The translations under genes were made by a program, and so were the position numbers. From NCBI RefSeq assembly GCF_026151205.1, contig NC_087073.1:15457837-15521836 (forward strand): 64,000 nucleotides of DNA. Reading direction: 5' to 3'. The notes beneath the pieces are model-generated. The model did not search any database and was not told where the DNA came from. It saw only the letters and a list, made by a program, of their open reading frames with translations. Below, one piece after another: positions 20,360 through 56,221 of the stretch. The stretch is from Bolinopsis microptera (lineage: Eukaryota > Ctenophora > Tentaculata > Lobata > Bolinopsidae). The stretch's first letter is position 1. Every line of letters begins with the position of its first letter.

Positions 20360-23300
20360 CTTAAGACTTTTAAAATGACCGAAAAGACTCCTCACTCCAG
20401 AGGAAAGTCAGCTAAAACGTGACATTTTAACAGTTGTACTGTTCACGTGTGATAAACTAACTCCAAACAAACCTTAACGATCTCTATTATTTTACCTGGT
20501 TTAAGGTGTGAAGGGTGGGGTTCGAGTTTCTTTATCTTGCTTCCATATTTTTCATATCCACTTTTTATATTGTATGGGTCTTTAGAAACATAGACTCCTC
20601 TAAAGAAAGGCCATGCGAAACAAATTTAAACTGACACCGGTTTTCCGTCAAAATCATTTTTAACTGTTCTCATATTATTAAATCAGCTGAAATGTGCTCT
20701 AAAGCTTCGAAGTTAAAATCTTAATAAAATAAGTTTATTTAATAGAATCATGCATACTTGACACGTCGACACGATCATTAGTTTTTTGCGGTCATCCACT
20801 CCTACAGCCTTGTTTTGTTAATCGTTTCATTGTTGAAGATATTTAGGCGAGCATTCTGGTCAAACTGTATGTGATCTTAGCAAGTACTATCCTCATCTAG
20901 GCAACCCTTCATATCTATTCGCGTTGAACTTGTGACGTTAAACGTCTATTTATTCATCAATTTCCATCCTGCTGTCGGAATTAGAACCAACTTCAATACA
21001 ATTTTAATATCCTAGAACCTCATGATATAAATGATAAAGTGTCGTTTATATCCTTGATACTGCTAGTCATTAGCGAGTTTATTCCTTGATGGGCAATTAT
21101 TGGAGTAAAAGTACGGATTGTAGGAAAGTAGCTGCGTCTATAGAGGACGCCATAAAAACATTCAGCAATTAGCTCTTCTTCTTTTAAAATGATGTTGCAC
21201 GGAAAGTACTTAACCATCTTCCTTAACAATTTGTCACTCAAAACCACTCTCTTGAATGTCTTAATAAGTATATACCACTTTTTAGTTTTACCACTCCCAC
21301 GAAAAGCTGAACTTTGAATTTGGAGGTTTTAGCGTTATTCTATTATAATAGAATAACGCTAAAACCTCCAAATTCAAAGTATATATAATTGAAGTTTAGA
21401 GGTTTCAACGGCCAGATTTCCAGTGGTATTGTTAAACCTCAATTCGCTATTGTCAATGAACATTGAAGAATGGTGGTCGCCATGTTTTCAAACATGGTAC
21501 TTTTACTAATTAGTGTGTCAATCTCAATGACAGTTTAAAGTTATGCTGGCAAAATATCATCAAAACAGTGACGTTCCACCTCGGTTATTTCTCATGATTC
21601 TCAATACCATTTGACTGTTGTAATCTAGATTTATTGTGCACGAGTGGTTCCCTTTGTGGGTTGTTTGCTTGCCACCGTGCCACCGTGCCACCGTGCCACC
21701 GTGCCACCGTGCCATCCGCCCATTCTTAGCAGCACCACATAACCTCAAATATTTAATATTGGCTAACCTGCAGTGGTTTTCAATCCGTTTTAAAAACAAA
21801 ACAGTCAGACGCAAAATCAATTTTATTTCAGCAGATCGTCTAATTTTGTATGAAACTTTTTGAAGGTAAGTTTGCTTCCTGCATTTATTAACAAATTTGT
21901 AAAAATTTATAAGATTTTACTAAGTCTTTATTTTCAAACAATAATTTATTGTTTGAAAATAAAACTTTTACAAAATCAATTAACAATAAGATTGAATAAT
22001 TATCATTCTTGTTTTCCAATGCAGACGACACTTGAAGATTTCACGGTTAGCTGTTTAATTTCCCTTCTCCTGACGTACAATCAAATTCCATTCCGTCTTA
22101 TTATAACTAGACTCTCAAAAAAAGTAGTACTGATGAACGTTTTACTTATCACTTCACTATGACTCATCTTACTGCTTACGTTGGCTCCTCGTACGAATCT
22201 ACTGGTGGTTGACTTGCATACTATCTTGCATGTTTATCACCAATGATTGTTAATTTTCAGATCTACTTTTCGTCGAATATTCTCGCATTATGGCACCTTC
22301 CTATTTGCGCTGAAATAAGACCTTTAATTAGTACGCAATTTGATATGCTATCTTCCTTATCTGATCCGATTGGTCAAGCTGCAATCGTAAATTGCACCGC
22401 GATGATGCCAAGCCGGCATTAGCGATGCTTACGTACGACACAAATATTGCAATTGGAAATCTGAAGGATCTGTAAAACACATTGTAAATATGAAATTTGT
22501 CATGCAATCTTATCCATGTGTTCGTGCCTACGGAGAAGATTAATTCGGATACTGTGTGAAACTCAGCTATTTTGTAAAACACACGTCAGTCTTTCCACTT
22601 GATTACATAGTTTCGTCTTTAATCTTCATTAAGTGGAGATCTTCAATTTAGCTGCTGTTCAAGACAGAGAAGGAAAATTGCCGGGTAATCTAGCTCTCTC
22701 TCCCTCCGAAACACTCCGACATGACTGAATCAGCTTATAGTTTCGGCTACTACCCAACAGTACGATGTTTGTTTTAGTACTTAAATAGCTTTCATATCAT
22801 GATATTTTTCAGTGACTAAAATAATGTCCTTTCCTTTCCTTTCCTTTCCTTTCCTTTCCTTTCCTTTCCTTTCCTTTCCTTTCCTTTCCTTTCCTTTCCT
22901 TTCCTTTCCTTTCCTTTCCTTTCCTTTCCTTTCCTTTCCTTTCCTTTCCTTTCCTTTCCTTTCCTTTCCTTTCCTTTCCTTTCCTTTCCTTTCCTTTCCT
23001 TTCCTTTCCTTTCCTTTCCTTTCCTTTCCTTTTCTTTCCTTTTTGTCTTACAGACTTTTTTGCAGTATGGTAGTCTAATTGTCTGATCGTTAAGCAAGAT
23101 TATTTTAGGATTAACCTATCGTCACGCTTGATTACTGATTAGGTGTAGGATCGAGAGTTGTTAACGATTGATCATAAGTAAGCTGCATGTTATGCTCGTG
23201 GAAACGCTTATCGAATATCGACCAGTGCTACGGTTAATGATAATGAATACTTCTTGTCACGACCATGTCGTGGTGGACTGAATATGGCTACTTTGGTGTC

Positions 23301-36066: not shown

Positions 36067-39000
36067 CTAATGTTTCCTGATCATAAACTGAGCAAACCAC
36101 ACGAATGTAATTGTCATGATATAATGAGTTTCCAGGTGAGGAGAATCAGCTGAACTGGTCACTAACGCACTAACACACTCCGGTATCTCCTCACTCCAGG
36201 TGTTGTCACCACGGCATGTCAACTTACTGTGTCCCACCAACCTGTACCTGTAATTAAATAAGAGTTAACCTGCTGTGTCCCACCAACCTGTACCTGTAAT
36301 TAAGTGAGGGTTAACCTGCTGTGTCCTACCAACTTGTACCTGTAATTAAATGAGGGTTAACTTGCTGTGTCCTACCAACTTGTACCTGGAATTAAATAAG
36401 AGTTAACCTGCTGTGTCCCACCAACCTATACCTGTAATTAAGTGAGGGTTAACCTGCTGTGTCCTACCAACTTGTACCTGTAATTAAATGAAGGTTAACC
36501 TGCTCTGTCCCACTAACCTGTACCTGTAATTAAGTGAGGGTTAACCTGCTGTATCCCACTAACCTGTACCTGTAATTAAATGAGGGTTAACCTGCTGTGT
36601 TCCACCAACCTGTACCTGTAATTAAGTGAGGGTTGACCTGCTGTGTCCTACCAACTTGTACCTGTAATTAAATGAGGGTTAACCTGCTCTGTCCCACTAA
36701 CCTGTACCTGTAATTAAGTGAGGGTTAACCTGCTGTATCCCACTAACCTGTACCTGTAATTAAATGAGGGTTAACCTGCTGTGTTCCACCAACCTGTACC
36801 TGTAATTAAGTGAGGGTTGACCTGCTGTGTCCCACTAACCTGTACCTGTAATTAAGTTATGGTAAACCTGCTGTGTCCCATCAATCTGTACCTGTAATTA
36901 AATGAGGGTAAACCTGCTGTGTCCCACCAACCTGTACCTGTAATTAAATAAGGGTTAACCTGCTGTGTCCTACCAACATGTACCTGTAATTAAATGAGGG
37001 TTAACCTGCTGTGTCCCACCAATCTAATAATGTAGCCTTGACAGGTCTAATAATGTAGCCTTGACAGGTGACTTCAATGTTGATCTTTTGGTCCAGGGAC
37101 GAAACATAGCTGAATTTGAACAAACTATCTACAGTAACAATTTAATCCCTTTGATATCGATTGCCACCCATGCCAAGCCGGGTTGCAACGAAAGCTTAAT
37201 TGATAATATTTTAGTGAACTCTACTGAGCGTGTCTTAGGATCTGGAATTCTTGAATCCAAGATTTCCCGTCATAACCCAATCTTCTGTTTCATATCGTGT
37301 AATACTAAAGAGAGTCCAAATGATACCAAACTTAAACCTAAGTATGATTACTGTGAGTCTAATATAGAAAGCTTCCTTAATGATATTGGAAGGGATATCT
37401 ACCGATCGAACTTTTCGTATGATGAGGAAGGTTTTGAAAAATTTGTCGAAACTGTCCATGAAAAAATCGAACAGAATTTCAAATTGGACTCTACTGCTGG
37501 TTTTCAATCAAAACGCAATAGATTGATGAATCCATGGATCACTTCTGCGTTTATTAAATCTGTGTTTACTAAAGGCTTTCACTACAAGCGATGGAAGGCT
37601 TCGTGTACCAAAATCAACCCATTAGGTGAGGAAACTTTATATCTTAAGTATAAGGAGTATCGTTCTATCCTAAACAAAGCTATAAAATCTGCGAAAAAAG
37701 CCCACTATGGAAAAAAATTTGAACTTGCTAAAGGAAATATTAAAAAAACCTGGGAATTGATTAACGAACTCAGGGGTAAATCTAAAAAAGATATAAAAGC
37801 ATCATTCTTAATTGATGGTCGAATTGTAACTGAACGCCGTGAGATTGCTAACGGATTTAACATCTACTTCTCGTCTATTGCTCGTAATCTTAATTCAAAA
37901 GTTCAATCTTCTGTACCATCTCGTACGGTAACTGATGGCAATTTTATTAAGACGAAGTTTAAACAATACCTCAAGGGCAGAGAAAGAATAGTGAACTCTT
38001 TTTTTCTCAGCCCCTGTGACGAGGAAGAGATAAGTAAAATCATTGGTAGCCTTGAAAATGGGAAGGCAAGTGATATCTCTGTTAAAGTCTTAAAAAAGAG
38101 TGTAAATTATCTGTCTGGTCATATCTCTAGATTCTTTAATTGGTTCTTGGACAATGGGGTCTTTCCAAACAAGCTTAAAACGGGCTCTATTACACCAATT
38201 TATAAAAAAGGAGACTCACGATGCCTTGATAACTATCGACCTGTTTCTACATTACCGATATTTGGAAAAATACTTGAAAAAATAATCTATAATAGGTTAT
38301 ATAATTACCTCAGTGCTATGAACGTGATTTATGATCGACAATTTGGTTTTAGAAAACAACACTCAACATCTCATGCCGTAAACTATTCTGTCAATAAAAT
38401 ACTTAATGAGATTGAACAGAAAAATCATGTAATTGGAATATTTATTGATCTAAGTAAAGCATTTGACACAATTGAGCACGATAAACTCCTGCATAAACTT
38501 GAACACTATGGAGTAAGAGGTATTGCACTAAAAACTCTTGCTAGCTATCTAACAAACCGTAGCCAAGTAACTTCTTTTCAAACTGAAAAGTCGGACAAGT
38601 GTTCAGTTGAGTATGGTGTACCCCAGGGGTCAGTGTTAGGACCTCTACTATTTCTGATTTATATAAATGATATTGTGAGCTCCTCAAGCTTGGCTGAATT
38701 CGTCCTGTTTGCTGATGATACAAATATTTTTGTGATAGGTAGTTCAGCACAGGAAGCTTTTGAAAAAGCTAATCATGTAATGAAACAAGTCAGTAACTAT
38801 ATGGAGTCTAACAAGTTACATATAAATGCAGGGAAAAGTTGTTATATGCATTTTCAGCCAGGTTTGTCAAGAGCGACACAGACCTGTGCCAGAACACGGC
38901 CCTTTAACAGGAATCTAACGATTTTAATAGATGGCAAAAAGCTAGAAAAAGTTCAATGTACAAAGTTTCTTGGGGTGATAATAGACGAACAGCTAAGCTG

Positions 39001-42000
39001 GGAACCACATCTTAATCATTTATCTTTAAAACTGAACTCCAGTATTGTATCGATTAAGAGAATTTGCAAATTCATTCCCAAATCTGAATATTTGAAACTA
39101 TACAATGCTCTTTTTATGTCACATCTTAGCTATTGTATAAGTTGCTGGGGTGGGATCCCTAAACATAAGCTGAATAAAATCTTTGCAATTCAAAAACGAT
39201 GTATAAGACTGCTATTTGGTAACATTCCCAATTTTGATCATAAAGAATACTATTTAACCTGTGCACGTTCAAGAACTTATAACGAACATATGGCTAGCAA
39301 GAACTACTGTCTTGAACACACTAAACCGCTATTCACAGAGCAGAAAATTATGAACCTGGAGAATCTGCACATGTACCATACATTTATGGAATTATTCAAA
39401 ATTCTTAAATTTGATGTCCCCCAGTCGATTAAAGATCTTTTCAAGTTCTGTCCTAGAAATGAAAAACTTCGTCTGATTGTCCCATTACTGAGGTTGGATA
39501 TCTCCCAACAGAACTTTTTGTACACCTCTACGAAAATTTGGAATGACCTCAGCCCCTATGTATTCGAAATATGTGATGCTAATGTAGATGGGTTGATAAT
39601 CCCGGGTTCTTCCAAGAATTCAGACTTATCAGCTTCGTCAGGTGTTATTAAATCTAACCTTAAAAAGCACTTGCTATCCCTCCAAAATCGAGATGACCCT
39701 AATACATGGTAACTAATCTATATTATATCTCAAACTCTACATCCGGTACGGCTATGCACACATGATATCTCTCTCTGCCATGAAACATGGCTAACCTTTT
39801 AAACTGTGATTCAAAACCTAACGCTAAACTAAAACTCAACTGGGCTCTCCTTTGTCACCAAACTAAACCAATAAGTAATTTAAGATTATTATATTTTTCT
39901 ATATTTGTATACTGTAATTAGTATATTGACGTAGTGGATGGTTGAGGGGGTTTCAAGCACAGGTCACTCTCAAATCCTAAAGATAAGCAGTGGCCTTCGG
40001 CACTTGAAACCTCTTCAAACCTCCCCTGATTTATTTATTATTGATATTGTTTGATTGTGCCGTAAAAATAAATATTTGTTTTATTAAATATTTGTTTTAT
40101 TAATCTGTACCTGTAATTAAATAAGAGTTAACCTGCTGTGTCCCACCAAACTTTACCTAGATTCTTACCCATATATTTGAGGGTTAACCTGCTGTGTCCC
40201 ACCAAATTGCAGTTGGAATTAAATGCGAGTTAACCTGCTGTGTCCCATAATCTCATAATCAACTTGTAGAATCTTACCCATTTTTGCAGGAGAAAGGGAT
40301 TATATCACCAGGAACAAAAGGTGGTCCATCAGCTACTTTACTCGATGAAGCTGTTGTTTCTCCATATTGCACACTTTCCGTTATGTCTTTACACCCTCCT
40401 GTGGGAAATAAATAGGACATTAATTTAGCGCTGAACGTATCTTAAAGTCTTAACTAATTGTTTAGTACTATATATTATAAAGTTAGAACGGCATGGGCAG
40501 CGTTCCCCTACTAATGAAAATGCCTTTTCAAGCTTGCTATACAAATTTTAGTTGACGTAATGTTAAACGTAAAGTGAGCGGAAATATATCAGATTGATGC
40601 TAAACGTCAGTTGCTGTTGAGTAATTAGTTGGGGCATGAGTTCTCTGCGATAGTTGATTTATCAGCATCACAATACGATTACGTACGTAATGCTTACTGG
40701 GTGGCCCTAGTTCGCACGATATAAACGGTTTCAGCTGTTTTTAAACCAAGCTAAATGTCAATGCTCGTGGTTATTGGTTAATAATAATCCGTCTTTAAGA
40801 TTAAACAGTTAGTGATATTTGCGATCTAGAGATACGATTATCAAATGATGAAGTAGTTCGCTGTTTATTTGTCTCATGATACGGATTGAGTAACTCAGCA
40901 AATCGTTAGTTGCTTGTCACGCGTGAAATATCCTTAACAATATAGTCAGTGTCAGTGTAATACTATTACTAATAATTGCGCCATGAGTTGGCACAGAACT
41001 TTTTTCTCCGATTTTGATAAATTTGATTAAGTGGTAGCAGCCGTTAGAATCATATATTCAGCCCATACAAGTGCAGCTTGACGTGGCGGTTCGCGTAAAC
41101 TTGGGTTTAGTTTTTGATTAAATTTTACCTGGGGACCCCAGGCTAATATGTTCGTAGAAATTTGGCAGAATGACAGGCTGAGCGCCACCCAGTAAATTCA
41201 ATTTAAATGCTGTTGTAGATGTTCATGTAAAATTAAATGTCCTCAAGCCTATCGCCATCGGTAGCTTGTTTATAATTAGAAATAGATTCATAATTTGATG
41301 TCTAGACAGTGTTATTTTTATTAGTATTACTGCAGAGAGCAGGCGCGCTATTCCTATACTATCATAAAAGTCATGAAGTCCTGAGTATTATAATTGAGCA
41401 AGCGGTTTTGAAAACGCATGCCATAGGACCGTTATATTATAGTCTAGGCGGTGCACGATAAAAATAAACTTGCTCGGATTTTCAAAATTTTTGGACCGTC
41501 GTTTTCTAGAGACTGTGAGAATTTTCACAGTACCAAATTTATTATACCTTTATGGAATGATCAGTGAGTTTCGCCTAGGTGCCATATTTGATGGTGCGCG
41601 GCTTTTGGAGCAAAATTAAGTGTAAAAGTCGCGTAATTTGACGAAATTCGTTGATTTTTGTCGTATTATTCTGTCATATCTTCGGTTCCTGAACATGAAT
41701 CATGCTGAAAATTTGTCAGAACCTTCCAATCATACTTAACTACCGAACCTAATTTAGTTGGGAGAGATTGGCCTTGATTAAGAGGTCTAAAAATGACAAA
41801 ATAGGTATAAATTCGTTGATAACTCAAATTCTGAGCATCGAAATTGCTCAAACTAAATTAGGTTCAGTAGAACATAAGTGTTTACGTAAGCTGACCAAAT
41901 TTCAACAGAATTGTTATATGGGAAGTATTATAACTTTTCGATTGTTTCCAAAATAATGTGCTGGCCGAAATAAGAGCTAAAAACCATTCAATGGTCAGCG

Positions 42001-45000
42001 CGCGCGTCTTATCGTCGATGGCGCACTGACCGCGCGTATAATTTATACGCGCGGTCAGAAAAAGATGCAATTTTGTTCGTCAAATTTTTAATATTTACAT
42101 TAAAGTCGTCAGCCTTTAAACTGCCTTATGAATACCAATTATCTAGGCTGACCGACTGCTGGCAAATGCACAACCAATGTGCCATGTGACAATCAAGTTG
42201 TTCTACCAAGGTACATTAACATAAGGTTTTCATATTGCTTTCGTTTTTAATGATACTTATTTGTAATTTTACAGTTTTTCGTGGATTTAAGTACTACTAC
42301 TTGGCATATTATATTTATACGGTACACGATACTCATATTTTACATTCTATTTCTAACCATGGTGGTTATAATTCTGTACGTAGAGTCTGGAGTCGAATTA
42401 TAATAGACTAATATTAGTTACCTACCTAGTAAAGTGTTTCAACTTAAAATTCAAGTAACCAAAAGAAAGTTAACCACAGTACAATTATCATAAACTCTCA
42501 GTGCTCACTCATTGCAGCAAACTGTTTAATATTGCTATTAAATAATATAATAGTCATACTAACGGACACAAGTTAGGCGGTTGTTCTCGTCCACTGACCA
42601 CTCCACATCCAGCCCTGAACCACCAGTGGACACTTTCTGTTTGCACTGCAGAGTCTTGTAGCCAGTATCTCCCACTGCTTCTGTGTAACCGTTACCACAT
42701 CTTAGTGACACCTGTATCGGTGATTGTGTTCAGGACTTTGGATCTGGAGTTAAACGGGGTTTATGCTTTTAATACTTATATTAACAATAGCCACAGCCTA
42801 AGCACTAAGTACTGGTGTGTGGTGGACGAGTTCAGGTCCTTTTCCACCTTTTCGGGCCATCTCATACATATGTATTAAGATATTACATAACTGATAACTA
42901 ATATCCATAAACAATTAATCAACTTGAATAAATATGTTTCATCTTATAAACTATTTGAATCTTATAAACAAAACCTGCACCCGGACCACGTTTTGAGCTT
43001 TAAATTTCACGGCAGCGGTTTGGCTTAATATAATGTATATATATATAAAAGCTTAAGATACCGCGACGTGGCCGCGGTATTAAACCACGTAGTCTCAAAC
43101 CACGTGGCAGTCTCAATCCACGGTCTTAAACCACGCCGGCTTACTCCTAGCTACCACAGAATACTGCTCATTCCTGAGAGCACGCTATCAGGGTTAAGTT
43201 TAGCAAGGCTCTCATTCTCACCACGGTTGCACTTATACCTCTGCTATTACCCTCACAGCTTATACAAGTTACCTGGCCTTGTCAATGTCATGACGTCATG
43301 TTATCAAATAAAAATTATGTCATCTTAGAAATAGCCCCAGTAATCAGTGTGCTATAAATGATCAGTGTTACCCAATACTCACAGCTTATAAAACGAAAAG
43401 GAACCTGCAGGTGTTGTCATGTTATCATGTTATCAAATAAAAATTATGTCATCCTAGAAACAGCCCCAATAGCCAATATGCTATAAATGACTGAGGTGAC
43501 TCTAGAAGCCGATCAATAAGGTGTATATCCTCCCTGCCACGAGTCACTATATACTAGCCCCAACCACTGCACTCATATTATTTATTGATTTCTTTTCACA
43601 AAGCTGTTCACGTTCTAAAGTAATTAATGATATCTTTATGTTCATCTATATAGCAACTGAAGCAAAGAATAGTCCCCATAAAAATTGAACCGACCAGCCT
43701 GTTATCCGAGACATGACTTTTATTCAGTGACCCTTGATAAACAGATAATGATATGGTTGCGAATACCGAGTTTTAAAACCCGATGTGAGTCTCGGCTCGT
43801 GAGTATATGCTGCTAATTGATGATTTATAAACGTTAATAGTTTTTTCTCCGCCTTTTTGGGCCACCTCATACATAACTAATATCCACAAACAATTAATCA
43901 GCTTGAATAACTATTCTTCAAAAATCAAAATGACTTACATATAACTCAGCGTTGGGTTGAACTGGGGCTGAGTACTCCTCTGAGGTCACCAAACCAGGGG
44001 GATAAGTAACCTTGTAGCTGTACCGTGGTAACATGTGGCAACCCGCTGAGAGTTAGGGGGGGTAAGTAACCTTGTAGCTGTACCGTGATAACATGTAGCA
44101 ACCCGCTGAGAGTTACGGGGGGGGGGGGGGGGGGGGTAAGTAACCCTGTAGCTGTACCGTGGTAACATGTGACAACCCGCTGAGAGTTAGGGAGGTAAGT
44201 AACCCTGTAGCTGTACCGTGGTAACATGTGACAACCCGCTGAGAGTTAGGGGGGTAAGTAACCTTGTAGCTGCACCGTGGTAACATGTAGCAACCCGCTG
44301 AGAGTTAGGGGGGGGGGGGGGGTAAGTAACCTTGTAGCTGTACCGTGGTAACATGTGACAACCCGCTGAGAGTTAGGGGGTAAGTAACCTTGTAGCTGTA
44401 CCGTGGTAACATGTGGCAACCCGCTGAGAGTTAGGGGGGTAAGTAAACTTGTAGCTGTACCGTGGTAACATGTGACAACCCGCTGAGAGTTAGGGGGGTA
44501 ACATGTGGCAACCCACTGAGAGTTAGGGGGGTAAGTAACCTTGTAGCTGTACCGTGGTAACATGTGGAAACCCGCTGAGAGTTAGGGGGGTAAGTAACCT
44601 TGTAGCTGTACCGTGGTAACATGTGGAAACCCGCTGAGAGTTAGGGGGTAAGTAACCTTGTAGCTGTACCCGGTACCGTGTTAACATGTAGCAACCCGCT
44701 GAGAGTAAGGGGGGGGGGGGTAAGTAACCTTGTAGCTGTACCGTGGTAACATGTGGAAACCCGCTGAGAGTTAGGGGGTAAGTAACCTTGTAACCGTGGT
44801 AACATGTAGCAACCCGCTGAGAGTTAGGGGGGGGGGGGTAAGTAACCTTGTAGCTGTACCGTGGTAACATGTAGCAACCCGCTGAGAGTTAGGGGGGGGG
44901 GGGTAAGTAACCTTGTAGCTGTACCGTGGTAACATGTAGCAACCCGCTGAGAGTTAGGGGGGGGGGGGGGTAAGTAACCTTGTAGCTGTACCGTGGTAAC

Positions 45001-46642
45001 ATGTGACAACCCGCTGAGAGTTAGGGGGGTAAGTAACCTTGTAGCTGTACCGTGGTAACATGTGGCATGGCAACCCACTGAGAGTTAGTGCTATTCAATG
45101 GTGAGAATTTATGATTATTTCATAAATCATTTGCTCGAGCACAAAGTTTATTGAGAAATTAATGGACTAGTAATGCATTTTTAGCCTATATTCAAGTCAC
45201 CTTTATTAGGAAAAGATAGACTTATCAGCAATCCAATGTACCTACAACCCTATTAGCCATCTGGCTGACGTCTGTCTAACAGAGCTATAGCTGGGTGCAA
45301 TAAAAAATACAGAAGCAAGAAGATTTCAAATGGTTTTAAATGGTCCCAATGTAACGTCGTTACTAACGGCGCTCTCAGCTTTGTTACATATTTTAGTTTT
45401 TTTTGTGATACTATTCAAATATCGTATTTTTAACTTTGATAAATAGTGCTTTACCTGTGGCTGTTGTGAGTGAATGTCTTTCTTTTTTATTTTTTTGTTT
45501 TTATTTTTTCTTTAAAAAAATCCTTTTTTCTTTTTTTTATTTGACCCTATCGAAAATTGATAAAATGTTCGCCCTCTGAAAAATCTAATAATCTCCAACC
45601 CTAATTACCTTTAACCTGTTTCGCTAAAACTGACCACCTACACGAACTCACGCGAACAGTAGGTGTATCTGAGTTGAGAAGTGTCGGGGACCCCGGTAGC
45701 TGAGTATTTGTACCAAATGTTGGGGTGCCAGGCTCCATCTACTCCACATTGTACCACTATCCTTTGATCTGTATCTACCGTATCTACATCTACATCTGGC
45801 ACCCGTCTAACTCCGTTTGAAAATGTCTGCAAGGGAGAGAAAGGGTATCTAGATACTGATAATACGAACCCAAATTACATGAACACAATATGATTTAGGA
45901 AAAAAAACTTGCCTCCTGTGTCATTAGTGATTATACTATTATAGTATAGGGCCATGTGGATAGCACATGAATGCAACGTTTACATCAAAATTGTGTTTTT
46001 ATGCATGACCAAATCCGCTATCAAAATTATTTATCAGTTATCGAGTTAGTACATACTACATATTATAATGGTAACCATGAATAACACTCACAAAGCCAGT
46101 AGAAAGACACTTTACAGTGACAGTTGCCCAGGTGGCTCCCGAGTTTAGATTCCCGTTATTATCTGTTCCGTTACCATCCAGTTTAACACCGTACTTCCCA
46201 CCGTCCAGTGATGCTGGGGTACATGTGCTCTTCCCTGCAGTTACGAAATGGTTGAGTTATGAGTATTGAGCGATCTGTAACCTTATCAAGCAATTATGAA
46301 GGAGCTTTTGTCAGATATTTCTACGATTTACATTCGATAGGTACGCCTTTACGACATTCATTGATTAATATGCTCAGTCGTAGGAATAAATTGCCAGAGC
46401 ACCTCAATAGTTTAGTTAAACGGTCGTTTGATTTACGTATGCAGCTTATATTAAGATTATAATATGTGATATCATCTGAAACTGGAATCAGTTCTTGTTT
46501 TTCCCCCGGGCCCCGCATAATCGAATTGCCTCATGATTACAGCTATGAGTATGAGCTAAATCTTACGTTTTTAAACAATAATTAAACCTGATTTAAGAAG
46601 GGATGTCAGCAGCAACAGTACACCTGTTATCTTGATGCTCAT
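36067..46642 (-). CDS. CCP gene D: secreted three-module CCP/sushi protein
   Basis: Exons in transcript order: 46588-46642, 46092-46234, 45652-45826, 43939-44045, 42564-42711, 40278-40398 and 36067-36247 (stop TAG). Phases join exactly: 309 residues. MSIKITGVLLLLTSLLKS is a signal peptide. Module 1 has cysteines in exons 2 and 3 (STCTP, VKCLSTGF, VQCGVDGAW, TYC). Module 2 runs GCHMLPRYSY to LRCGNGYTE, LQC, W and LTCV. Module 3 runs GCKDITESV, PFVPGDIIPFSC, then LTCRGDNTW and PECV. Each module follows the CCP pattern of four cysteines with a GY after Cys2 and a Trp between Cys3 and Cys4. After Cys12 an extra tail ends in the hydrophobic YIMTITFVWFAQFMI, absent from paralogues A-C; it could be a membrane or GPI-type tail. 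Introns 3 and 6 hold minisatellites made from the gene's own acceptor sites, and intron 6 also holds an antisense retrotransposon. Confidence 0.88.
36242..37022. repeat. 46-bp minisatellite built from the 3' splice site and start of CCP gene D exon 7
   Basis: About 17 direct units in this block. Each, read on the minus strand, contains TTTAATTACAG then GTACAGGTTGGTGGGACACAG, the same acceptor and first bases as the real exon 7 at 36247. Units then return to GGTTAAC of the intron, where the real exon continues TAAGTTGACATGC. Four-unit blocks recur (units near 36500 and near 36690 share the same variants), so a higher-order repeat has formed. The array resumes at 40102 after the retrotransposon. 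Confidence 0.95.
37023..37068 (+). repeat. 23-bp direct duplication at the 5' edge of the retrotransposon
   Basis: 37023-37045 and 37046-37068 are identical (TCTAATAATGTAGCCTTGAC plus AGG). The second copy is in frame with the ORF (S-N-N-V-A-L-T-G-D-F-N), so the duplicated piece is element sequence. Confidence 0.95.
37061..39712 (+). CDS. Endonuclease/reverse transcriptase polyprotein of the non-LTR element, N-terminus missing
   Basis: Open for 883 codons to TAA 39710-39712, no frameshift. Residues 3-6 are GDFN of the apurinic-type endonuclease and residues 40-75 its end, but the usual SDH catalytic motif reads SRH near residue 70. The reverse transcriptase covers about residues 365-640, with PIYKKGD, NYRPVS, FGFRKQHST, IDLSKAFDT near 462, GVPQGSVLGPLLF near 519, and the catalytic FADD at 550-553. 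A C-terminal region of about 200 residues with spaced cysteines follows. The frame has no native start; it simply begins where the 5' truncation leaves it. The motif set fits the jockey/CR1 group. An intact RT frame in a truncated copy implies recent insertion, but loss of most of the endonuclease makes it non-autonomous. Confidence 0.92.
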   Translation: MTGDFNVDLLVQGRNIAEFEQTIYSNNLIPLISIATHAKPGCNESLIDNILVNSTERVLGSGILESKISRHNPIFCFISCNTKESPNDTKLKPKYDYCESNIESFLNDIGRDIYRSNFSYDEEGFEKFVETVHEKIEQNFKLDSTAGFQSKRNRLMNPWITSAFIKSVFTKGFHYKRWKASCTKINPLGEETLYLKYKEYRSILNKAIKSAKKAHYGKKFELAKGNIKKTWELINELRGKSKKDIKASFLIDGRIVTERREIANGFNIYFSSIARNLNSKVQSSVPSRTVTDGNFIKTKFKQYLKGRERIVNSFFLSPCDEEEISKIIGSLENGKASDISVKVLKKSVNYLSGHISRFFNWFLDNGVFPNKLKTGSITPIYKKGDSRCLDNYRPVSTLPIFGKILEKIIYNRLYNYLSAMNVIYDRQFGFRKQHSTSHAVNYSVNKILNEIEQKNHVIGIFIDLSKAFDTIEHDKLLHKLEHYGVRGIALKTLASYLTNRSQVTSFQTEKSDKCSVEYGVPQGSVLGPLLFLIYINDIVSSSSLAEFVLFADDTNIFVIGSSAQEAFEKANHVMKQVSNYMESNKLHINAGKSCYMHFQPGLSRATQTCARTRPFNRNLTILIDGKKLEKVQCTKFLGVIIDEQLSWEPHLNHLSLKLNSSIVSIKRICKFIPKSEYLKLYNALFMSHLSYCISCWGGIPKHKLNKIFAIQKRCIRLLFGNIPNFDHKEYYLTCARSRTYNEHMASKNYCLEHTKPLFTEQKIMNLENLHMYHTFMELFKILKFDVPQSIKDLFKFCPRNEKLRLIVPLLRLDISQQNFLYTSTKIWNDLSPYVFEICDANVDGLIIPGSSKNSDLSASSGVIKSNLKKHLLSLQNRDDPNTW
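39713..40101 (+). other. 3' UTR of the non-LTR retrotransposon
   Basis: About 390 bases between the RT stop and the junction with the minisatellite. AT-rich, ending in the 16-bp tandem repeat that is the likely template-recognition end. Confidence 0.7.
40102..40255. repeat. Distal part of the 46-bp splice-site minisatellite
   Basis: About three more units, increasingly diverged. One contains ATTCTTACCCAT, resembling the exon 6 donor region just beyond (ATCTTACCCAT at 40271), so this edge mixes acceptor- and donor-side sequence. It was contiguous with 36242-37022 before the retrotransposon insertion. Confidence 0.85.
41127..41193. repeat. Short dispersed repeat, copy 1 (67 bp)
   Basis: Starts ACCTGGGGACCCCAGGCTA and ends CAGGCTGAGCGCCACCCAGT. 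Related copies at 48536 and 49584. Lies in CCP gene D intron 5. Confidence 0.85.
42026..42058. repeat. GC-rich palindrome, 15-bp arms
   Basis: CTGACCGCGCGTATA, ATT, then the exact reverse complement of the first arm. In CCP gene D intron 5. Confidence 0.9.
42843..43920. repeat. Diverged direct duplications in CCP gene D intron 4
   Basis: GGGCCATCTCATACAT followed by AACAATTAATCAACTTGAATAA near 42863-42930 recurs near 43860-43910. A second pair (GTTATCAAATAAAAATTATG) lies near 43300 and 43429. No coding potential seen in this intron. Confidence 0.7.
43998..45088. repeat. 59-bp minisatellite built from the 3' splice site and start of CCP gene D exon 4
   Basis: Eighteen units. On the minus strand each reads CTAACTCTCAG then CGGGTTGCCACATGTTACC and CGGTACAGCTACAAGGTTAC, which is the acceptor and opening of exon 4 (44045 downward). 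A variable C tract (G on the + strand, up to 20 at 44117-44136) joins units. The copy at the lowest coordinate continues into the full exon; the others lie upstream in intron 3. Length differences between units come mostly from the C tract; one unit near 44495 is truncated. Confidence 0.96.
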
Positions 46643-47094
46643 GTTATTGTTGCACTGGAAACTAGCTCTCTGAATAGCTTATATATACCTCAGGTCATGC
46701 CAATTTAATATTCATTCTTGGCTGTGCTGACAATAAGTTGTTGATTTACTGACATGGATATAACATATAACCCTTTAATCGTCAGGATCAACTTTACTCG
46801 TTAACGTCTATTTATATTACTGTTAAAAATTTTATATTCTTAATTTAAATGGAGGCGATGTGATTATGTATACAAATACAATCTGTAAATTAAATTGAAA
46901 GAGTTATAATTGTATAAATTAATAGCCATCACAATAAAAATATTCCTGATTTTACATGAGAATGCTAGAATATCCGTTCGCGTTGCAGTTATTGATTATT
47001 TTATATGAGAATGCTAAAATATCCGTTCGCGATGCAGTTAATAATTATTTTACACGAGCTGAATTGAGTGGTCGAGAATGCTCAATTTCTCTCT
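46643..47094. other. Spacer between CCP genes C and D
   Basis: About 450 bases holding the 3' UTR of gene C and the promoter of gene D. ATGAGAATGCTA(G/A)AATATCCGTTCG occurs twice (near 46956 and 47006), a 50-base duplication. Confidence 0.6.
46679..46687 (-). promoter_or_regulatory. TATA box of CCP gene D
   Basis: TATATATAA on the minus strand about 38 bases upstream of the gene D ATG (46642). If initiation is about 30 bases downstream of the box, the 5' UTR would be only about 10 bases. Confidence 0.5.
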
Positions 47095-50000
47095 TCAATT
47101 TAACTGCACAGTCCCATTTTCAGGTGAAACATTCCAAACATTCCTTCTCTTCCTGCTGTTCTCGTTGTAAACACAGGTGGGGAGGTCACTGTCCCAAGTG
47201 TTGTCTCCCTTGCATACCAACGTCTCGTTTCCTACCAGCACAAAATCTGGGGAACACAATCTGGTTGATGGATATCTTAGAGCCTAGATATTTGCCAAAA
47301 CATATTCTTCAGCCTCGGTATTTGGAGACTTAAGGGGGTTTTATAATAGCAAAGTTGGTTCAAGGAATAAAAGTATACTTCTCGCTGATGACCGCATAGG
47401 TTATAGTTGATGGCTGGGTGTCTGAGTAAACGTTAAAACTTTAGATCCACTAAATCAGGACCATGCTGCTAATTCCTGTTTAATTCCTGTTTAATTCGTG
47501 TCAAATCCAGTTATACCAAGACAGGGAAATCAATAAAGCTAATTTGCTAAACTTTAAAAGTCAGTGCACTTTGGAGCTTGAGGTGGGAACTATACCTGTT
47601 GAACAGTGAAATGTCACTTTGTCTCCAGGTCGGAATGGTGGTTCACCCGTACTTGTGGCAGGTTGTGCTGTTGTTTTACCCCACCGTACTGACTTCGTTA
47701 TGTCATTGCAACCCTCTGAAGTTATATCAGAATTGAGAATTTTTTAGACACAGCATATCAATAAGAAATGCAATATCTATTACCTAAAATCTTGAATTAA
47801 GCTGGGGTTCCAACGGGGATATAACATTTGCACGATTAAGCGATCTTGGTGTGACATGTCTTATTAACGCAGGGAAATAGAAACGAGGGCTGATTTAATT
47901 AACATGATCTAGGACGGAGTAGTGGAACTATTTAGTCTACATACTGACACATCTTACGAAGGATGTCGTACTCCACTGTCCGGCGGTCCTGCAGCTAGCA
48001 ACAGTTCCTCCACCGTCTCCAACTGCTCGAGTGTATCCTGTCCTGCATGTTACTGTTGCCTGAAAAACAGTCCTGGTAACAACTTTATCAGCCCCTTCCC
48101 CTGTTCGGATTCTGCATTCAATATAAAAATACACAGGACGTGTCTTTCGCTTTTTTGAATATTTTCATGACTTATGTTGAATTTGATAGGTCAATAAATT
48201 AAAAGGTTCTAGGCTATCTTGAGGTGATGAACTTTGTAGAGAATCATCTTACCTTTCTTCAAATCGGTAACCTATTCCTTAAAATATTGCTCTCGTAGCA
48301 GAGCTCCATGTGCTAAATAGCAATCCTGATTTTATTTCTAATCAAGCGATAATACCTCAGGCAATCTCGAATGGGTATAAAAACAAAAAATTATGATTGC
48401 TAATTAACCGGAAGGGATCATTTGATTGGATATAATCGGGTTTTCAAGGTATCATAATTTGGTTTGGTTAAACAGTCCCTTTAAATCCACCAATAAAACC
48501 AATTTCTTAATTGGATCAACTATAAGCTGATATTTACCTGGGGACCCCAGGCTATTATGTTCATAAACGAATAGAGATTCGGCGGAATGACAGGCTGAGC
48601 GCCGCCCAGTAAAGCTGATATTTGTTTTGTCGCGTGATATCAGAAGCTGATCGATGTATAAAAGAGAGGACACGTCCTAATAGTAATAGAGATACGATCA
48701 GTATATTGACCACAGTAATTCTACAATCTCCTTACACGTTACTCTCTCCATAGCCATTCAGTCTCGTTTAACTTATCAACCAGGAGAATTGGATCGGTTA
48801 TAACCATCTTTTGTGCAAATACAAACAGAATGATGTCCATAGTTTTACTAAAAGCTGAGCCCATCACCTCAAACCAACTGCATGAGATATTCTCGTATGT
48901 GACTTGATTTTGCGGCAACCGTATTACGTTTAGGAGCCGCAGCCAGCGCCACAGAGCAACGTGAATGGCTGCTACTGCGTCGTGACGATTATATCTCGAT
49001 ACAATTAATATAACCGCACAGTTTTAATATTATAAATAATAATTAGCTAAAAGTGTATTTTTATTGTCTCCTTGAATAACTCACTTTTTTGATGCTATTG
49101 AATGGAGGTGTAAATTCACGATAATATAAAATGTCCGCTCTATGCTGCCCCGCGGGTGTTCGAACACTAAGTTTTAGAGAAATTGCTGTCCTAGAACTCT
49201 AGAAGTTAACCTACGTTGACTGGGGAGTTGGTCCGCGAGGGGATGATGGGAGGGCTGTATCGTTCACTCGTAACCATACCTCCACCGTAACTCACAACGT
49301 GAGTTTCACTCTGTATTACTGGGCAGCCAGCTGCAAACAATATTTATTATTCATCTGGGAATGTGATTATTCCAGGTTCCATGATTTGAGAATAATAATC
49401 CTTACGCAGGATCTATAATTCATGTTGAAATTTTCACTGAGAGCATCAAGGCTTTTCGTCACATGACTCACTCAGATCCTTTCTGGATCTTTTGGGAATT
49501 GCAGGAGTTATTGCTTTATTATATTATGTTATACTTACATATTGATGAAGCTGTTTATGGTCTTTAAGTGGTGTAGATTTATTACCTGGGGACCCCAGGC
49601 TATAATGTTCATAAACATATTTTGAAGATTGAAGATGCGGCAGAATGATGCAGGCTGAGCCACCCAGCTTAACCCAGTAACATATTTGTATTCCCGTTTC
49701 TACTTATGAGAGGGTTCCAGCTGTACCGGAACATGTAACCACTCTCTCCCGTTTCTACTTATGAGAGGGAAATATTTACGTGGGAGTGTACCTAGATTCA
49801 TGAGATGTGCTAATATTCTTCACAGTCAACGTACTCATTCCGATTAGTTTATATAATTATAGTAGTTATACGTACATGTTGTTGAGAGCTGAGAGGCTGA
49901 TCTCGAAGGTGATCCAGATCGTATCTTATAATGATCATGCTATGTCGGTTGTTTAACATCTCTTTCAAGAGCTGAACATCTGAAATATCACATAACGACC

Positions 50001-51972
50001 TAATGGTTTCCTTTCGGGAGCAAATTGTCGTTTGATTAAACCACAACTCAACTACTCAACTATAACTTAGCTTTTTAAAATTAAAGACATAATGCAGGTC
50101 TCCTAAACCACGGGTTAGGTGGTCCCATGAACAAGTTGTCTGTATAGCAGGGTTGCAGGTTGAGCTGATAAACAACGTAATCCAGTTGATATTGATAATC
50201 AAAGTGTTTTCTAGAAGGCTGGCGGACCAGAAGGTGCCAAGTGATGAAGTAATCTGACCATCAATCACAGTTGGTCTGCGACTTAAAATCTTTGACTAAA
50301 CTACTAGGGAGTATAAAAGTGGAGCGTTTTTATTGCCACTATTAGACGATCCATTTTTATTTTACATGAGCTGGTCGCAGGATCGCTTTCATTTGTTGCC
50401 AGTAATTGAGGAGTCAGTCAGTCAGAAGCCATAGAGATCATATCTTGACATCCAATCAGTGACGATTAATTGGTGCTGTGATCACAGCAGGAAGAGATCC
50501 TGTGAAGTGGCCCTCTCCTCTGCTTGGTGTTGCTCGAAGAACAAATCTAACAAGTGTCCCTATATCTATGCTAAATCACTCTTTCAGACACACTCTTTTC
50601 CTTGGAACTATTTCGAGCAGACTTATTTATGGTCAGTCACTGTGGCCAGCAAGGAAATGATTCCTCTCACATGTACATATCCTTTAGATTTTCGGAACCA
50701 TTTTACCAGAATTCTTCAGGATCCGGAGTTACCTCGACCCTCAAACATGGTGGAAGGGTCACAATTTAAAACATTACACTTTGAATCAATTACATCTTAC
50801 AATATACGTAATTTGGCCTTTAAAACCGCTGCTATTATTATATATGTGCGAAATCGGGAAAAAAAACTAGCTAAATAATGGAAAAATCAAATAAATGGAA
50901 TGGAAAATTATAGTCTCGAAAAGTCGAAAAAATGCGACTAAAATTGTTGTAGACTCAACATTTGCGAAATTTTTGACTAAAATTATGGTAACCAACATTT
51001 TTGTAACCAACATATTTTGTTGTGAACCAAATTTATATGCCTTAAGGTAATAGGTCTTTCTCACGGCGATTCGCAGTTCCATAACAATCACCATAATCAG
51101 AAACTGCATGATTTGCTGTGGTTGGCGCTTATTTATCTTTAATTATCGAAAACCCCAGTATTGACCAGCTGACGGTTTGAAACTAATGAGCATCTTTAGT
51201 ATCCGTTAGAATTCAGCTAATAATATCTTAGTCACCTGCACACATGTAGGTTATAGGTTCGCTTGTCAATGAGCCATCTGTCTTGTGCACCATCTCAATC
51301 CTAGGACTCCACTGATTCTTACTGGTACATCTCACTGGGACCCCTCCAGTTGAGTAGATAGCGTATGCTCCTATTCCTGGAATTAACTTAACTTCGTTCG
51401 TAAACGTCTGCAGGAATATGATAAATTAATATTCATTAAAAGTATGAAATTGAAGTAAATTATACCGAACTTTAATATACGGTAAATTTAAAATCGAGGG
51501 GTTTAGTAAGATTAATCAATCATACATATTTTGATAATGTGATTGGGTATCTTCTTTGGAAACGGTTTAATATAGAGCGTATCCCATTTTCAATATTTCA
51601 ATAAACATATTCATAAAATTGAACGCGATGACTTTAAAGCGACTATATATAGTATATAGTGTTTATTAGCACTTGCCACCGCGTTCATAGTTATACTACC
51701 GCGTTTATAGAATTATACTATAAAAACGATGGTACTGCGTTACAGAATCAGTTGCCCACCTCGAAGTTATGAGCACACTTTAAAGTGAGAGTTTGTCCGG
51801 ACACGTCTGTACCAGTCAGGTCCTCTATCTCCTTAGTGCCGTTGTAGAACGTTACTCCGTGCTTTTTCTTGGTAAATGAGGTGTAGCAGCTGGATTCATA
51901 GACGGGTATGATGAGGTAGATGAGAACTGGGAAGATAAAGATCTTCTTTGCTGGTTTTTTACATGATGTCAT
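47095..51972 (-). CDS. CCP gene C: secreted three-module CCP/sushi protein
   Basis: Exons in transcript order: 51760-51972, 51236-51407, 49215-49330, 47945-48059, 47596-47715 and 47095-47246 (stop TGA). Phases join: 295 residues. The first exon reads straight through a signal peptide (basic SCKKPAKK, hydrophobic IFIFPVLIYLIIPV) into ESSCYTSF. Module 1 ends CTSKNQW and YMC. Module 2 runs GCPVIQSETHVVSYGGG with VTSERYSPP, then VTCRTGYTRAVGD, SC, W and RCV. Module 3 runs GCNDITKSV, PPFRPGDKVTFHC, VCKGDNTW and PTCV, then a basic tail RKRRNVW. Exon 4 has a second acceptor at 48111, but only 48059 keeps phase with exon 3 and matches gene D. The first two exons could instead be joined by an unseen upstream exon through a cryptic acceptor at 51926; read-through gives the better signal peptide. 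Confidence 0.87.
48536..48611. repeat. Short dispersed repeat, copy 2, with 12-bp flanking duplication
   Basis: ACCTGGGGACCCCAGGCTA to CGCCGCCCAGTA, flanked on both sides by AAGCTGATATTT (48524-48535 and 48612-48623), a target-site duplication. Therefore a mobile sequence. Lies in CCP gene C intron 3. Confidence 0.88.
49584..49678. repeat. Short dispersed repeat, copy 3 (95 bp)
   Basis: Same ends as the copies at 41127 and 48536, with a roughly 20-base insertion in the middle and a small expansion before the final CCCAGT. In CCP gene C intron 2. Confidence 0.8.
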
Positions 51973-52584
51973 AACTGAGATATTATTTGGGGGTTTAATT
52001 TGTAAATGAGAGTCCAGCCTATTTTATTACTTTCATTTGCTATTAGTATGAACCAATTGCAATCAAGTATTTTCACACCGATTGTTATTAAGAGACCCAT
52101 ATTTGAAAGTTTACAAGATTAAACTTAGATATTTTAGTTTGGACAATTGTTCAAGCTAAAATTTCGAAAGAAAGCTGTGGTTAATTTGTTATCGATTTTC
52201 ATTTATTAAATATACCATTGTATAACTTGAAACTCTTTATTTTACACAGTAAAATCCCTATTTACCGTACACTGATACATTATGAGGGCACCTATAAAAT
52301 GTGAGTTTCCAAGAATTACCAAACGTACGCTCAATTCTTTAACTCCATAACGAATGTAGCACGGTTATAATAGTCTGTACGAATTCTCATAGCAGCACAT
52401 GTTATACTTGTTGGCTTGTTGCCAAGAGTCTAATAGTTCACTGAGTCCAGGAACTACCTCTCCCGTATATCAAGCTCTGCCAACTGCTTGATCCACGAGC
52501 TGTGATCACTGACCGACCATTCCTTAATGTTGATGTAGTATGCTCATTGATCATGGTTTATGAGAAAGGAGGATGGTGAGAGAC
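51973..52584. other. Spacer between CCP genes B and C
   Basis: About 610 bases, AT-rich, no gene. Holds the gene C promoter (no clear TATA box) and the gene B 3' UTR; AATAAA on the minus strand near 52202 is a possible polyadenylation signal. Confidence 0.5.
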
Positions 52585-55500
52585 TCAAGGTTTCACGCAC
52601 TCGGGCGAGTTCTCGTTCCATTTCAACAGTCCAGTACAGGTAAGAGTAGAGTAACCAACTAACACGTGACCTGGTTCACACCTGGTAACCAAGGTGAATA
52701 TTCATTTTATCTGTCAAAAACACTCTTAAGAGCATTCCAAGTGCAGGTGTGGCTGGAAAATACAGATCTTCAAGTTATAAAACTGTTATATTGGCAAAAA
52801 ATAACAACGGATGGTAATATAGCTCACGAGAAAGTGACAGTGTCTCCCGGTTTGAAGGGAGCCTGATTGGGAGTGCTGTTGGGGACGTCTGTAGTTACTC
52901 CACCACTTACAGACCTTGTTATGTCAGGACAGCCTCCTGCGCGGAAATTAACGATGATATCCTATAGATAACAGACAGAGAGTCGCAAAACATCAACAGA
53001 TTTTGGTTCAAATGAGGTTTGTCAAGGACAATGGACATGGTGTTAAAACACTTTTTGTCGCATTTTAGAACACTTTTTGTCGCATTTTATAATATTTGAA
53101 TCGGACTTTTTTGATCAATTAAATTATATAAATATTCATATTAATTATTTTTCAAAATTGGAATTAGAACTCGACGCACGGTAAACGCACAGTCACTTAA
53201 CGCACGGTAAACGCACGGTAAACGCACGGTAAACGCACAACCACTTAACGCACGGTAAACGCACGGTAAACGCACAACCACTTAACGCACGGTAAACGCA
53301 CGGTAAACGCACAACCACTTAACGCACGGTAAACGCACAACCACTTAACGCACGGTAAACGCACAGTCACTTAACTATTTACTTACTTAACATACGTAAC
53401 GGTATACTCACGTGTAAATGACGCATGGTTGACGAACTGTCTTAGTGAATGAATCTTGACCAACAGAAACTAAATTTCATTTAGCTCAATATTGACTGCT
53501 ACTTTATAATCAATTTCTGCAGCTCTGGACCAAGTTTATTAATAATTAAGTTCACAGACACATGTCAGGACAGACAACATAACGTTGGCAGGTATTCGCC
53601 TATTTAAAGGCAGTAAGATCAGTATATTAAAGTCATTATTGTAACGGTATATTAGAACCAGACAGAAAAAAGTGTGAAGGGCCTGAGCGGAACCCATCGG
53701 TTTCAGTTCCTTGTTTAACACTGCCGTACAGCAAGGACATTCACCGAGTTCTCCACAAGATGCTCTGTCAAATGTTGCTTATATATACCGAGAATCTACA
53801 GGAAATATTTCCTTGTAGGTTTAGAGGGTGATCTGTGAACAGATAATTACATCATTCAAAACTTAAAGGAATTAGAATTCCTATACTATCCCAAGTCCCA
53901 ACGAGCTACACCAAGCATAGCTTTAGACGAGAACAGCCGCGATAAATCAGCAGGCTAGCGCTCTTGGTTATATATTAAAGTCATTATTGTAACGGTATGT
54001 CAGTATGTGACTCAATCTATAAAGGAACCTGATGTTTGGGGCATCCTCCATAGCTTTGAGATTAAAAGCTTATAAAAGCTTTTAACTTCTAAATAAAACT
54101 TTTAGTTTCCGTTTTTAGCTTTAAAAATAGTAATTCCAAATTCATGGGGCAGATAAATGCACTAATAGTAATCGACAATTTTAATAGGCATGCACTCTTT
54201 GGATGGCCTTTCTCCGTCTGTTTTACATATGTCGTACTATATTTTGCTATCTAGACTAACTTATTTGTACATGATGAGTGATCAAGACTTACTGTGTGGA
54301 CATTGGAAAATGGAATCGTTACTTACTGACACAGTTAATGAAGTCTTCCTTTTTAGGGGACCAGTTCACTTCTTCGGTACTTTTCTTACACTGCGACTTA
54401 CTGCTGCCAACGTTGCCCGTAGCGATCGTATATCCAGGCTGGGGAAATTCGTTGTGACATATTTTACACATTTTACACATTTTACACATTTTACACATTT
54501 TACACATTTTACACATTTTACACATTTTACACATTTTACACATTTTACACATTTTACACATTTTACACATTTTACACATTTTACACATTTTACACATTTT
54601 ACACATTTTACACATTTTACACATTTTACACATTTTACACATTTTACACATTTTACACATTTTACACATTTTACACATTTTACACATTTTACACATTTTA
54701 CACATTTTACACATTTTACACATTTTACACATTTTACACATTTTACACATTTTACACATTTTACACATTTTACACATTTTACACATTTAAGATAACTAGC
54801 AGGAACCCGTATAACCCTAAAATGGTGTCAAGACTCAAGAGACTAAAATAATTATTATCTATTTAATTCGCGTTTTTGACACCACTGGGGGGTCCAAATT
54901 TGGGGCTGTAAAACTTCTATTTCTTGGCCAATTTTTTATTTTTTCATGCTGATTTGGAGGCCATTAAAGCATTTGGCCCAGTCAAAAAAGTTTCAGTTGT
55001 ATATCTTTTACGGTTTTTGGGGAAAGTAGCGTTAAAGTTGATGCCGTGGTGTCAGTAAAATGGCACGGATAAACATATATCGTCTCGCTTTATATATAGT
55101 AAGATTACAAAAGAATAATGATGGTGAGGAACTAAGAGTACCTGGCAAGAAAAGGAAATGAAAGAATCTTTAAGGTATGTGATAGGAGGACTACTGTCCT
55201 CAGATGTTACTATAGCTGCAGGATAGGATACTTTGTACTTGTCCTCTCTTACTGGAGGACAACCCTCTGAAATTGTGGCGACTGATTTAATTACCTTAAA
55301 CAACAGTATTATTTGTTTCTTCTTTGAAATAAACCAGATTTTCCGGCTGCCATGAAACCTGTGGTGTCAGAATCAGATATATGCCAAACACAGTGCGAGA
55401 GCTGCAGCATGATTACTGTTGTTCATGTTAATTTATCAGACTTGTCACATTTGGGAACCTTAATTACCTCTTCCTCTCAAATGGTGACTTCTTCATTCGT

Positions 55501-56221
55501 GAATTTTGTAATAAACTATTAACGAACTGTCGACAAATTAATGAATTCCTGAATGTTCCCCTTTGTAGGATCGCAGTTGTTTATAATTAACTTCCATATA
55601 TGGGCATTGACATACCATCACAAAACAGATACCGATCGTATCCCAAAACGGTCTTGGAGATGTCAGGCTTCATGTTGTTTCCCACTTCACAACTTATCTT
55701 GAGACCTTCATCATGGTCCAGGCTAAAGGTGTTGACCCCGTCTACTTTTCTTATTCCGTTGACAAATTGCTGAAAACATGTAAAGTGCTATTATTATTTT
55801 GATCCCAAAATAAGAAGACACACCTGAGCTTTGTTTCAACTTCATCACAACTTTTTAATACTATGACAGGTTATACCACAAACTTATAATAAATAATACG
55901 CCAAGTTTTAAAACCAACAAACACAATAAACAAATATAAACTTACGTATCCTTCTACACACTTGACAGTGATATACTCTCCAACTCCAAACCTTACCGTC
56001 AAGTTATTGTCCTCATTCGTTAAGTCTAAATCGTGAAAATAGGACACACCTTTCTGGACTATTACTTGAAAGTTGTAGGTGAAAGTACAGTCTGCTCTAG
56101 AGGTCGGCATCAAGGCCCAAATAACGGTTACTGAAATCAGGGATATGGTAATTTGAAGTTTGGAAACTCGAGGTATTGCAATTTTAGGCATTTTGAGTGA
56201 TGGAGTATACTTTCCCCGCAT
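52585..56221 (-). CDS. CCP gene B: secreted three-module CCP/sushi protein
   Basis: Exons in transcript order: 55946-56221, 55616-55769, 55142-55266, 54327-54438, 52828-52936 and 52585-52681 (stop TGA). Phases join: 290 residues, or 280 from the second ATG at 56191. The signal peptide has the hydrophobic stretch ITISLISVTVIWAL, then RADCTF. Module 1: DC, KCVEGY, SCEVGN, LFC. Module 2: GCPPVREDKYKVSYPAA with VTSEDSSPP, FSCQPGYTIATGN, QC, W, NCV. Module 3: GCPDITRSV, PFKPGDTVTF, SCEPGHVLVGY, LTC, W, PECV, ending three residues later. Cys2 of module 3 is the first full codon of the last exon. A cryptic acceptor at 56131 matches the intron position used in genes A and D, so an extra upstream exon is possible. 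Most similar to gene A by eye. Confidence 0.88.
53173..53375. repeat. Minisatellite of CGCACGGTAAA and CACAACCACTTAA units in CCP gene B intron 4
   Basis: An 11-base unit (CGCACGGTAAA) alternates with CGCACAACCACTTAA or CGCACAGTCACTTAA, giving compound units of 26 and 37 bases. No match to gene B exons seen. Confidence 0.92.
54460..54789. repeat. Nonanucleotide microsatellite (TTTTACACA)n next to CCP gene B exon 4
   Basis: About 36 pure copies. On the transcript strand this is (TGTGTAAAA)n, ending about 21 bases before the exon 4 acceptor at 54439-54440. HFT/CKM-type ORFs are artefacts. Confidence 0.97.
54790..55100. repeat. Dispersed AT-rich element, full copy (about 310 bp)
   Basis: GATAACTAGCAGGAACCCGT at one end and ATATATCGTCTCGCTTTATA at the other match the ends of the short copy at 35822 in reverse. 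Interior parts recur inverted at 58662-58812 and, diverged, at 57424-57620. In CCP gene B intron 3. Confidence 0.8.

What the first reader, a model, noticed from the sequence alone, without database searches (positions are those of the whole stretch)
36242..40255. A second, independent splice-acceptor minisatellite in the same gene, before exon 7
Units of 46 bp each contain TTTAATTACAG and the first 21 or so bases of exon 7, then jump back to intron sequence. Two unrelated acceptors of one gene having expanded in the same way makes chance unlikely and points to a mechanism, for example slippage between microhomologies (exon AAGTTGAC versus intron GGTTAAC at the junction). TTAAC about 17 bases before each AG could serve as a branch site, so every unit looks like a complete acceptor module. 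Each decoy also has CACAGCAG|GTTAAC, a weak donor, making a possible 24-nt microexon that would keep frame.
Basis: partly seen in the sequence, partly recalled or inferred. Interest (0 to 1): 0.9.

Follow-up and report, generated by a model that had tools for sequence, protein, structure and literature searches.

The report
Repeated splice acceptors inside an intron
One intron of an animal gene (probably a comb jelly) is filled with repeated copies of its own splice acceptor and the start of the next exon; the same kind of repeat, called a mirage, was described earlier in amphioxus, where it does not disturb splicing.

Summary
On the minus strand, a seven-exon CCP/Sushi gene (309 aa) has 16 decoy copies of the exon 7 acceptor at exact 46-bp steps above the real one (36247), each with about 21 coding bases. 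A LINE of about 3 kb splits the array; about three degenerate units lie behind it, next to the exon 6 donor. The 40278-to-36247 join is supported by a Sushi domain spanning it and by an intronless paralog aligned across it without a gap; no RNA was available. Direct use of any of the 16 decoys gives a stop after 13 residues. The claim that two such arrays in one gene argue against chance is not supported: arrays cover 9.5% of sampled CCP loci and touch exon edges as random placement would (10 of 94 zones; null mean 7.9). Three other CCP exons in the genome have junction-spanning arrays, at acceptors and donors. This matches 'mirages', minisatellite-like duplications of intron-exon boundaries reported in amphioxus (PMC3087553), which RT-PCR there suggests do not interfere with splicing. 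Best reading: a mirage minisatellite seeded across the acceptor and tolerated because splicing to the 3'-most acceptor restores the mRNA. New member of a known kind, in what is probably a ctenophore.

The parts
36067..36247 (-). Exon 7, last coding exon, second half of the third CCP; real acceptor just before 36247
   Evidence: Phases agree across 7 exons; Pfam Sushi spans the exon 6/7 join
36227..37022 (-). 46-bp mirage-type minisatellite: real acceptor module plus 16 decoys (22 nt intron tail + 24 nt exon head); units 5-8 and 9-12 are near-identical blocks
   Evidence: TRF, cutting, lag-4 differences 1,0,0,0
37023..40100 (+). LINE with reverse transcriptase inside one array unit; possible short target duplication AGATT (by eye)
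   Evidence: 893-aa frame 37031-39712, RVT_1; flanks printed; ends approximate
40102..40247 (-). 5' remnant of the array, about three degenerate units; one holds a 14-of-15 copy of the exon 6 donor
40278..40398 (-). Exon 6, first half of the third CCP; donor GTAAGA
42564..42711 (-). Exon 5
43939..44045 (-). Exon 4, start of the second CCP
43996..45067 (-). Companion array: 17 decoy acceptors plus the real one; unit mostly about 59 bp with 43 nt of exon 4
45652..45826 (-). Exon 3
46092..46234 (-). Exon 2
46588..46642 (-). Exon 1, signal-peptide-like start (by eye)

Best explanation
A mirage: a minisatellite seeded by a tandem duplication across the intron 6/exon 7 acceptor, which then grew by block duplication. 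A duplication of [intron tail + exon head] is silent if the 3'-most acceptor is used, because every extra copy, coding bases included, is then intron and is removed. Shown: unit anatomy, block duplication, gene model, and that among the acceptors tested only the 3'-most gives the full protein directly. Inferred: that RNA uses the 3'-most acceptor and that decoys are mostly silent.
For: 22 nt intron tail + 24 nt exon head in 16 decoys. Recent block duplication, units 5-8 against 9-12 differ by 1,0,0,0; inner units have near-identical partners while the real unit and units 13-15 do not (nearest distances 3 and 4,4,2), as reported for mirages, though inner unit 3 (distance 4) is an exception. 16 of 16 decoys stop after 13 residues, the one left of the LINE (40110) also stops early, and 17 of 17 decoys of the companion array stop early. 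Intronless paralog L042 aligns without a gap at both joins (36% identity over residues 8-275). Paralogs B, C and D lack a 46-bp array at this intron. Edge contacts at the random rate. Junction-spanning arrays at L053, L032 and L022. [quoted passage not shown]
Against: No RNA here. Decoy acceptor cores differ from the real one by only 0 to 2 of 18 nt, so the sequence does not say why they should be passed by. Arrays reaching at least 5 nt into matched exons were fewer than the null (2 against 5.6, P 0.08), so such arrays may not be wholly neutral.
Confidence: 0.76

Rival explanations
1. The decoys are used: single units as 24-nt in-frame microexons, or decoy acceptors giving a shorter CCP protein that ends in the last coding exon and so might escape junction-dependent decay.
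For: 16 of 16 microexons keep frame; sites intact in nearly all units; exon 7 is the last coding exon. The amphioxus paper says AG/GT signals in mirages could serve as cryptic sites.
Against: 22-nt gaps between units; no 8-aa insert in the intronless paralog; no array in paralogs B-D; CAG|GTTAAC is weak (general knowledge); amphioxus RT-PCR suggests regular splicing.
Confidence: 0.12
2. Intron gain or shift from mirage repeats (the model of PMC3087553, after Rogers): apart from the LINE, intron 6 is repeats almost from donor to acceptor.
For: The remnant reaches close to the exon 6 donor and one unit holds a copy of that donor (0 of 1000 shuffles as good); intron positions differ among paralogs and one paralog is intronless; the model predicts repeats inside gained introns.
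Against: The 22-nt intron part of the unit matches no coding sequence of the gene (shuffle P 0.33-0.78); paralogs B-D have an intron within a few codons, so an old intron later filled by repeats is simpler.
Confidence: 0.08
3. Assembly error or a dead gene.
For: One assembly only, no reads; the amphioxus paper found a mirage misassembled in a genome draft, so copy number may be wrong.
Against: Open 309-aa frame over seven GT-AG exons; units differ from each other and the LINE sits inside one unit.
Confidence: 0.04

Closest known systems
[quoted passage not shown] the original Adh3 paper, Canestro et al. 2002, is not held and was seen only as a reference)
   Same: [quoted passage not shown] both kinds of boundary affected; AG/GT signals in many units; units of 10-160 bp; block-wise turnover with odd units at the edges; several loci in one genome
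   Different: Another phylum (probably a ctenophore) and gene family; 16 and 17 decoys here against 3 and 6 units in BflGb6 haplotypes; splicing and length variation not tested here
Minisatellite with multiple splice donor sites in the human gene 6-16 (IFI6/G1P3)
   Same: A tandem repeat carrying splice sites (only the title was seen, in the references of PMC2572611; the rest recalled)
   Different: Donors there; mainly acceptors with 24-43 nt of exon here
Potato RdRp intron gain by tandem duplication (PMC4974935, passages)
   Same: Duplication spans branch site, polypyrimidine tract, 3' splice site and exon start; cryptic GTAAG as donor
   Different: A single duplication giving a used intron; here an array without evidence of use
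Internal tandem repeats changing exon-intron structure in human paralogs (PMC2812944, passages)
   Same: Minisatellites at exon-intron boundaries in recent paralogs
   Different: About 30-bp units repeated 4 times; half in coding sequence

Membership tests
Mirage (intron-exon boundary minisatellite) | Tandem units each containing intron end, splice site and exon start | tested here: met
   16 decoys with AG and exon head; companion array
Mirage (intron-exon boundary minisatellite) | Minisatellite turnover: homogenised inner units, odd units at the edges | tested here: met
   inner unit 3 is an exception
Mirage (intron-exon boundary minisatellite) | Does not disturb regular splicing | not testable with these tools
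   No RNA held
Mirage (intron-exon boundary minisatellite) | Length differs between haplotypes or somatically | not testable with these tools
   One assembly only
Splice-donor minisatellite (6-16/IFI6) | The repeated sites are donors | tested here: not met
   Main repeated site is the acceptor; CAG|GTTAAC exact in 11 of 16 but weak
Intron gain by AGGT duplication (Rogers/Hellsten) | Intron is a copy of exonic sequence | tested here: not met
   Intron half of the unit matches no coding sequence
Intron gain by AGGT duplication (Rogers/Hellsten) | Intron absent from close relatives | tested here: inconclusive
   Paralogs B-D have one within a few codons; L042 is intronless
CCP/Sushi gene | Sushi domain above the Pfam cut-off | tested here: met
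   PF00084, 45.4 bits against 20.7, residues 228-274

The most novel reading that the evidence does not exclude
Mirages are not a cephalochordate oddity but a recurrent class in repeat-rich animal genomes, here probably a ctenophore; they offer the spliceosome dozens of near-identical competitors, and by supplying spare junctions they help to move or create introns, which would explain why tandem paralogs of this gene split the same codons at different places and phases.
Probability: 0.25. Interest if true: 0.65.

Novelty: new member of a known kind. Interest (0 to 1): 0.35.

Why it matters
It is a natural test of how a spliceosome chooses among near-identical acceptors, and it shows how coding sequence can enter an intronic minisatellite without harm, because splicing undoes a duplication across an acceptor. 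Finding mirages in what is probably a ctenophore would extend a phenomenon described in amphioxus to a distant animal phylum, next to paralogs whose intron positions differ, where the proposed link between mirages and new intron positions can be tested.

Tried and rejected
Rejected: a dispersed repeat (7 matches, all in the window; counts are lower bounds). The exon 4 array gave 7 matches: 5 here and 2 scraps of 31 and 26 nt elsewhere on the contig. Rejected: an exon-derived intron half of the unit (array 2, P 0.33-0.78; array 1, P 0.20-0.99).

Near arrays. Of 52 CCP loci, 14 had an array (period 10 or more, 2.5 copies or more) within 120 nt of the matched exon (L058 duplicates L008). On reading, L032, L053 and L022 span a junction. 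Not spanning: L036, L021, L008, L016, L009 and L015. L068 is ambiguous. L054, L055 and L065 were printed only in part; their arrays lie 69-100 nt away and I saw no spanning, but did not settle their junctions.

Controls and limits. One search used 47 loci, one per distinct matched exon. Dropped: loci of gene A (L001-L007, L038-L041, L043-L048, L064, L067), duplicates (L025, L057, L058, L062, L066), and L072 and L073. Some of the 47 overlap, so bases and arrays are partly counted twice (149,409 bases summed; 134,834 unique bases for 52 loci). Domain edges stand in for exon edges, so L022 counts as touching, not as reaching in. In 20 kinase loci (28 matched exons) no array of period 10 or more and 2.5 copies or more reached into a matched exon; two-copy repeats did (L079 inside, L081 at an edge). 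The kinase arrays near exons, L088, L085 and L080, do not span. CCP 3 of 47 against kinase 0 of 28: P 0.29.

Retention of AG in 16 of 16 decoys proves nothing: at 5.8% divergence its chance is 0.15.

Having read its passages I changed novelty from new variant to new member of a known kind, lowered interest from 0.45 to 0.35, raised the best explanation from 0.72 to 0.76, and lowered use of decoys from 0.15 to 0.12 and assembly error from 0.05 to 0.04; I moved the novel case from 0.2 (interest 0.7) to 0.25 (interest 0.65), since its statement is now wider.

Literature searches: (ten). Searches found no paper; one unrelated review (listing only).

Full report
Source. The window lies on contig C2 of a 264.65-Mb genome in 232 contigs. 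Its 13 large contigs sum to 258.07 Mb, 97.5% (lengths). Bolinopsis microptera has 13 chromosomes, 265 Mb and 346 scaffolds (PMC11797021, passage), with 97.23% of bases in the 13 (PMC10232365, passage). The species is probably this ctenophore; the number of sequences differs, and this is inference.

Gene model. Seven minus-strand exons give an open 309-aa frame with GT-AG introns and end phases 1,0,1,0,1,2. Pfam reports one Sushi stretch, residues 228-274, 45.4 bits, across the exon 6/7 join; the other CCP-like parts were judged by eye and by the paralogs. A paralog on C11 (L042) is one open 304-aa frame and aligns to residues 8-275 at 36% identity, with 23 gap positions in all but none at the exon 3/4 or 6/7 joins. 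This supports the 40278-to-36247 join, though it is not RNA.

Anatomy. Above exon 7 lie 16 decoy modules at 46-bp steps, each an intron tail with a branch-like site and acceptor, then 24 nt like the head of exon 7. A LINE splits the array; behind it are about three degenerate units, one with a 14-of-15 copy of the exon 6 donor. Apart from the LINE the intron is nearly all array. Units 5-8 and 9-12 differ by 1, 0, 0 and 0 bases.

Consequences. Direct splicing to any of the 16 decoys stops after 13 residues; the decoy left of the LINE also stops early; each of the 16 as a 24-nt microexon would keep frame; 17 of 17 decoys before exon 4 stop early.

Is it special to this gene? The unit was found only here. 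But three other CCP exons have arrays across a junction, with unrelated sequences: L053, 103 bp x 3.7, at an acceptor (two AGs in the unit are possible); L032, about 38 bp, at the acceptor, with a probable 33-bp donor-side array on the same exon; L022, 91 bp x 3.8, at a donor, the exon end supported by its paralog L021. Others abut a junction without crossing it. Over 47 loci arrays make up 9.5% of bases and touch 10 of 94 edge zones, null mean 7.9, P 0.27; those reaching 5 nt or more into the matched exon are 2 against 5.6. Two of 12 junctions in this gene at these rates has P 0.27 or 0.16. So the class recurs, but not beyond random placement in so repeat-dense a genome; if anything, deep overlaps are thinned.

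Mechanism. A tandem duplication across an acceptor gives tail-head-tail-head-rest; splicing to the last acceptor restores the mRNA, so the copies are hidden and can grow. That RNA does pass the decoys by is inferred; by sequence their cores are nearly as good as the real one.

What is known. [quoted passage not shown] The authors propose that mirages can create new intron positions. Every feature testable here is met. The present case adds a probable ctenophore, longer arrays, and paralogs whose intron positions differ, which is where that proposal could be tested; I have no evidence that arrays caused those differences.

Noticed in passing
window 42564-60498, paralogs A-D: The introns splitting CCP2 and CCP3 sit at different codons and phases around the conserved Cys-x-x-Gly in four tandem paralogs, with no indel seen by eye in the protein there: sliding, or independent gain.
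   Followed up: partly
L042 (C11:10422979-10423707): An intronless paralog with an open 304-aa frame and a hydrophobic C-terminal tail: a retrocopy or an older form.
   Followed up: partly
window 54457-54788: A 9-bp array of 37 copies ends about 18 nt before a gene C acceptor (exon from 54438) without crossing it.
   Followed up: partly
L016 1686-1891 (minus strand): An 11-bp array repeating a TACTAAC-like branch motif about 18 times lies just before an acceptor.
   Followed up: no
window 1-9277: Three units of about 3.1 kb, each a TCC-rich stretch of about 1.9 kb between 171-172-bp satellite copies that look inverted to each other (orientation by eye).
   Followed up: no
window 47470-47501: A short 11-bp repeat (2.9 copies) lies inside gene B's intron at the place that matches gene A's intron 6, away from its junctions.
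   Followed up: no
window 22827-23042: A TCCTT pentamer array of 43 copies, 99% matches.
   Followed up: no
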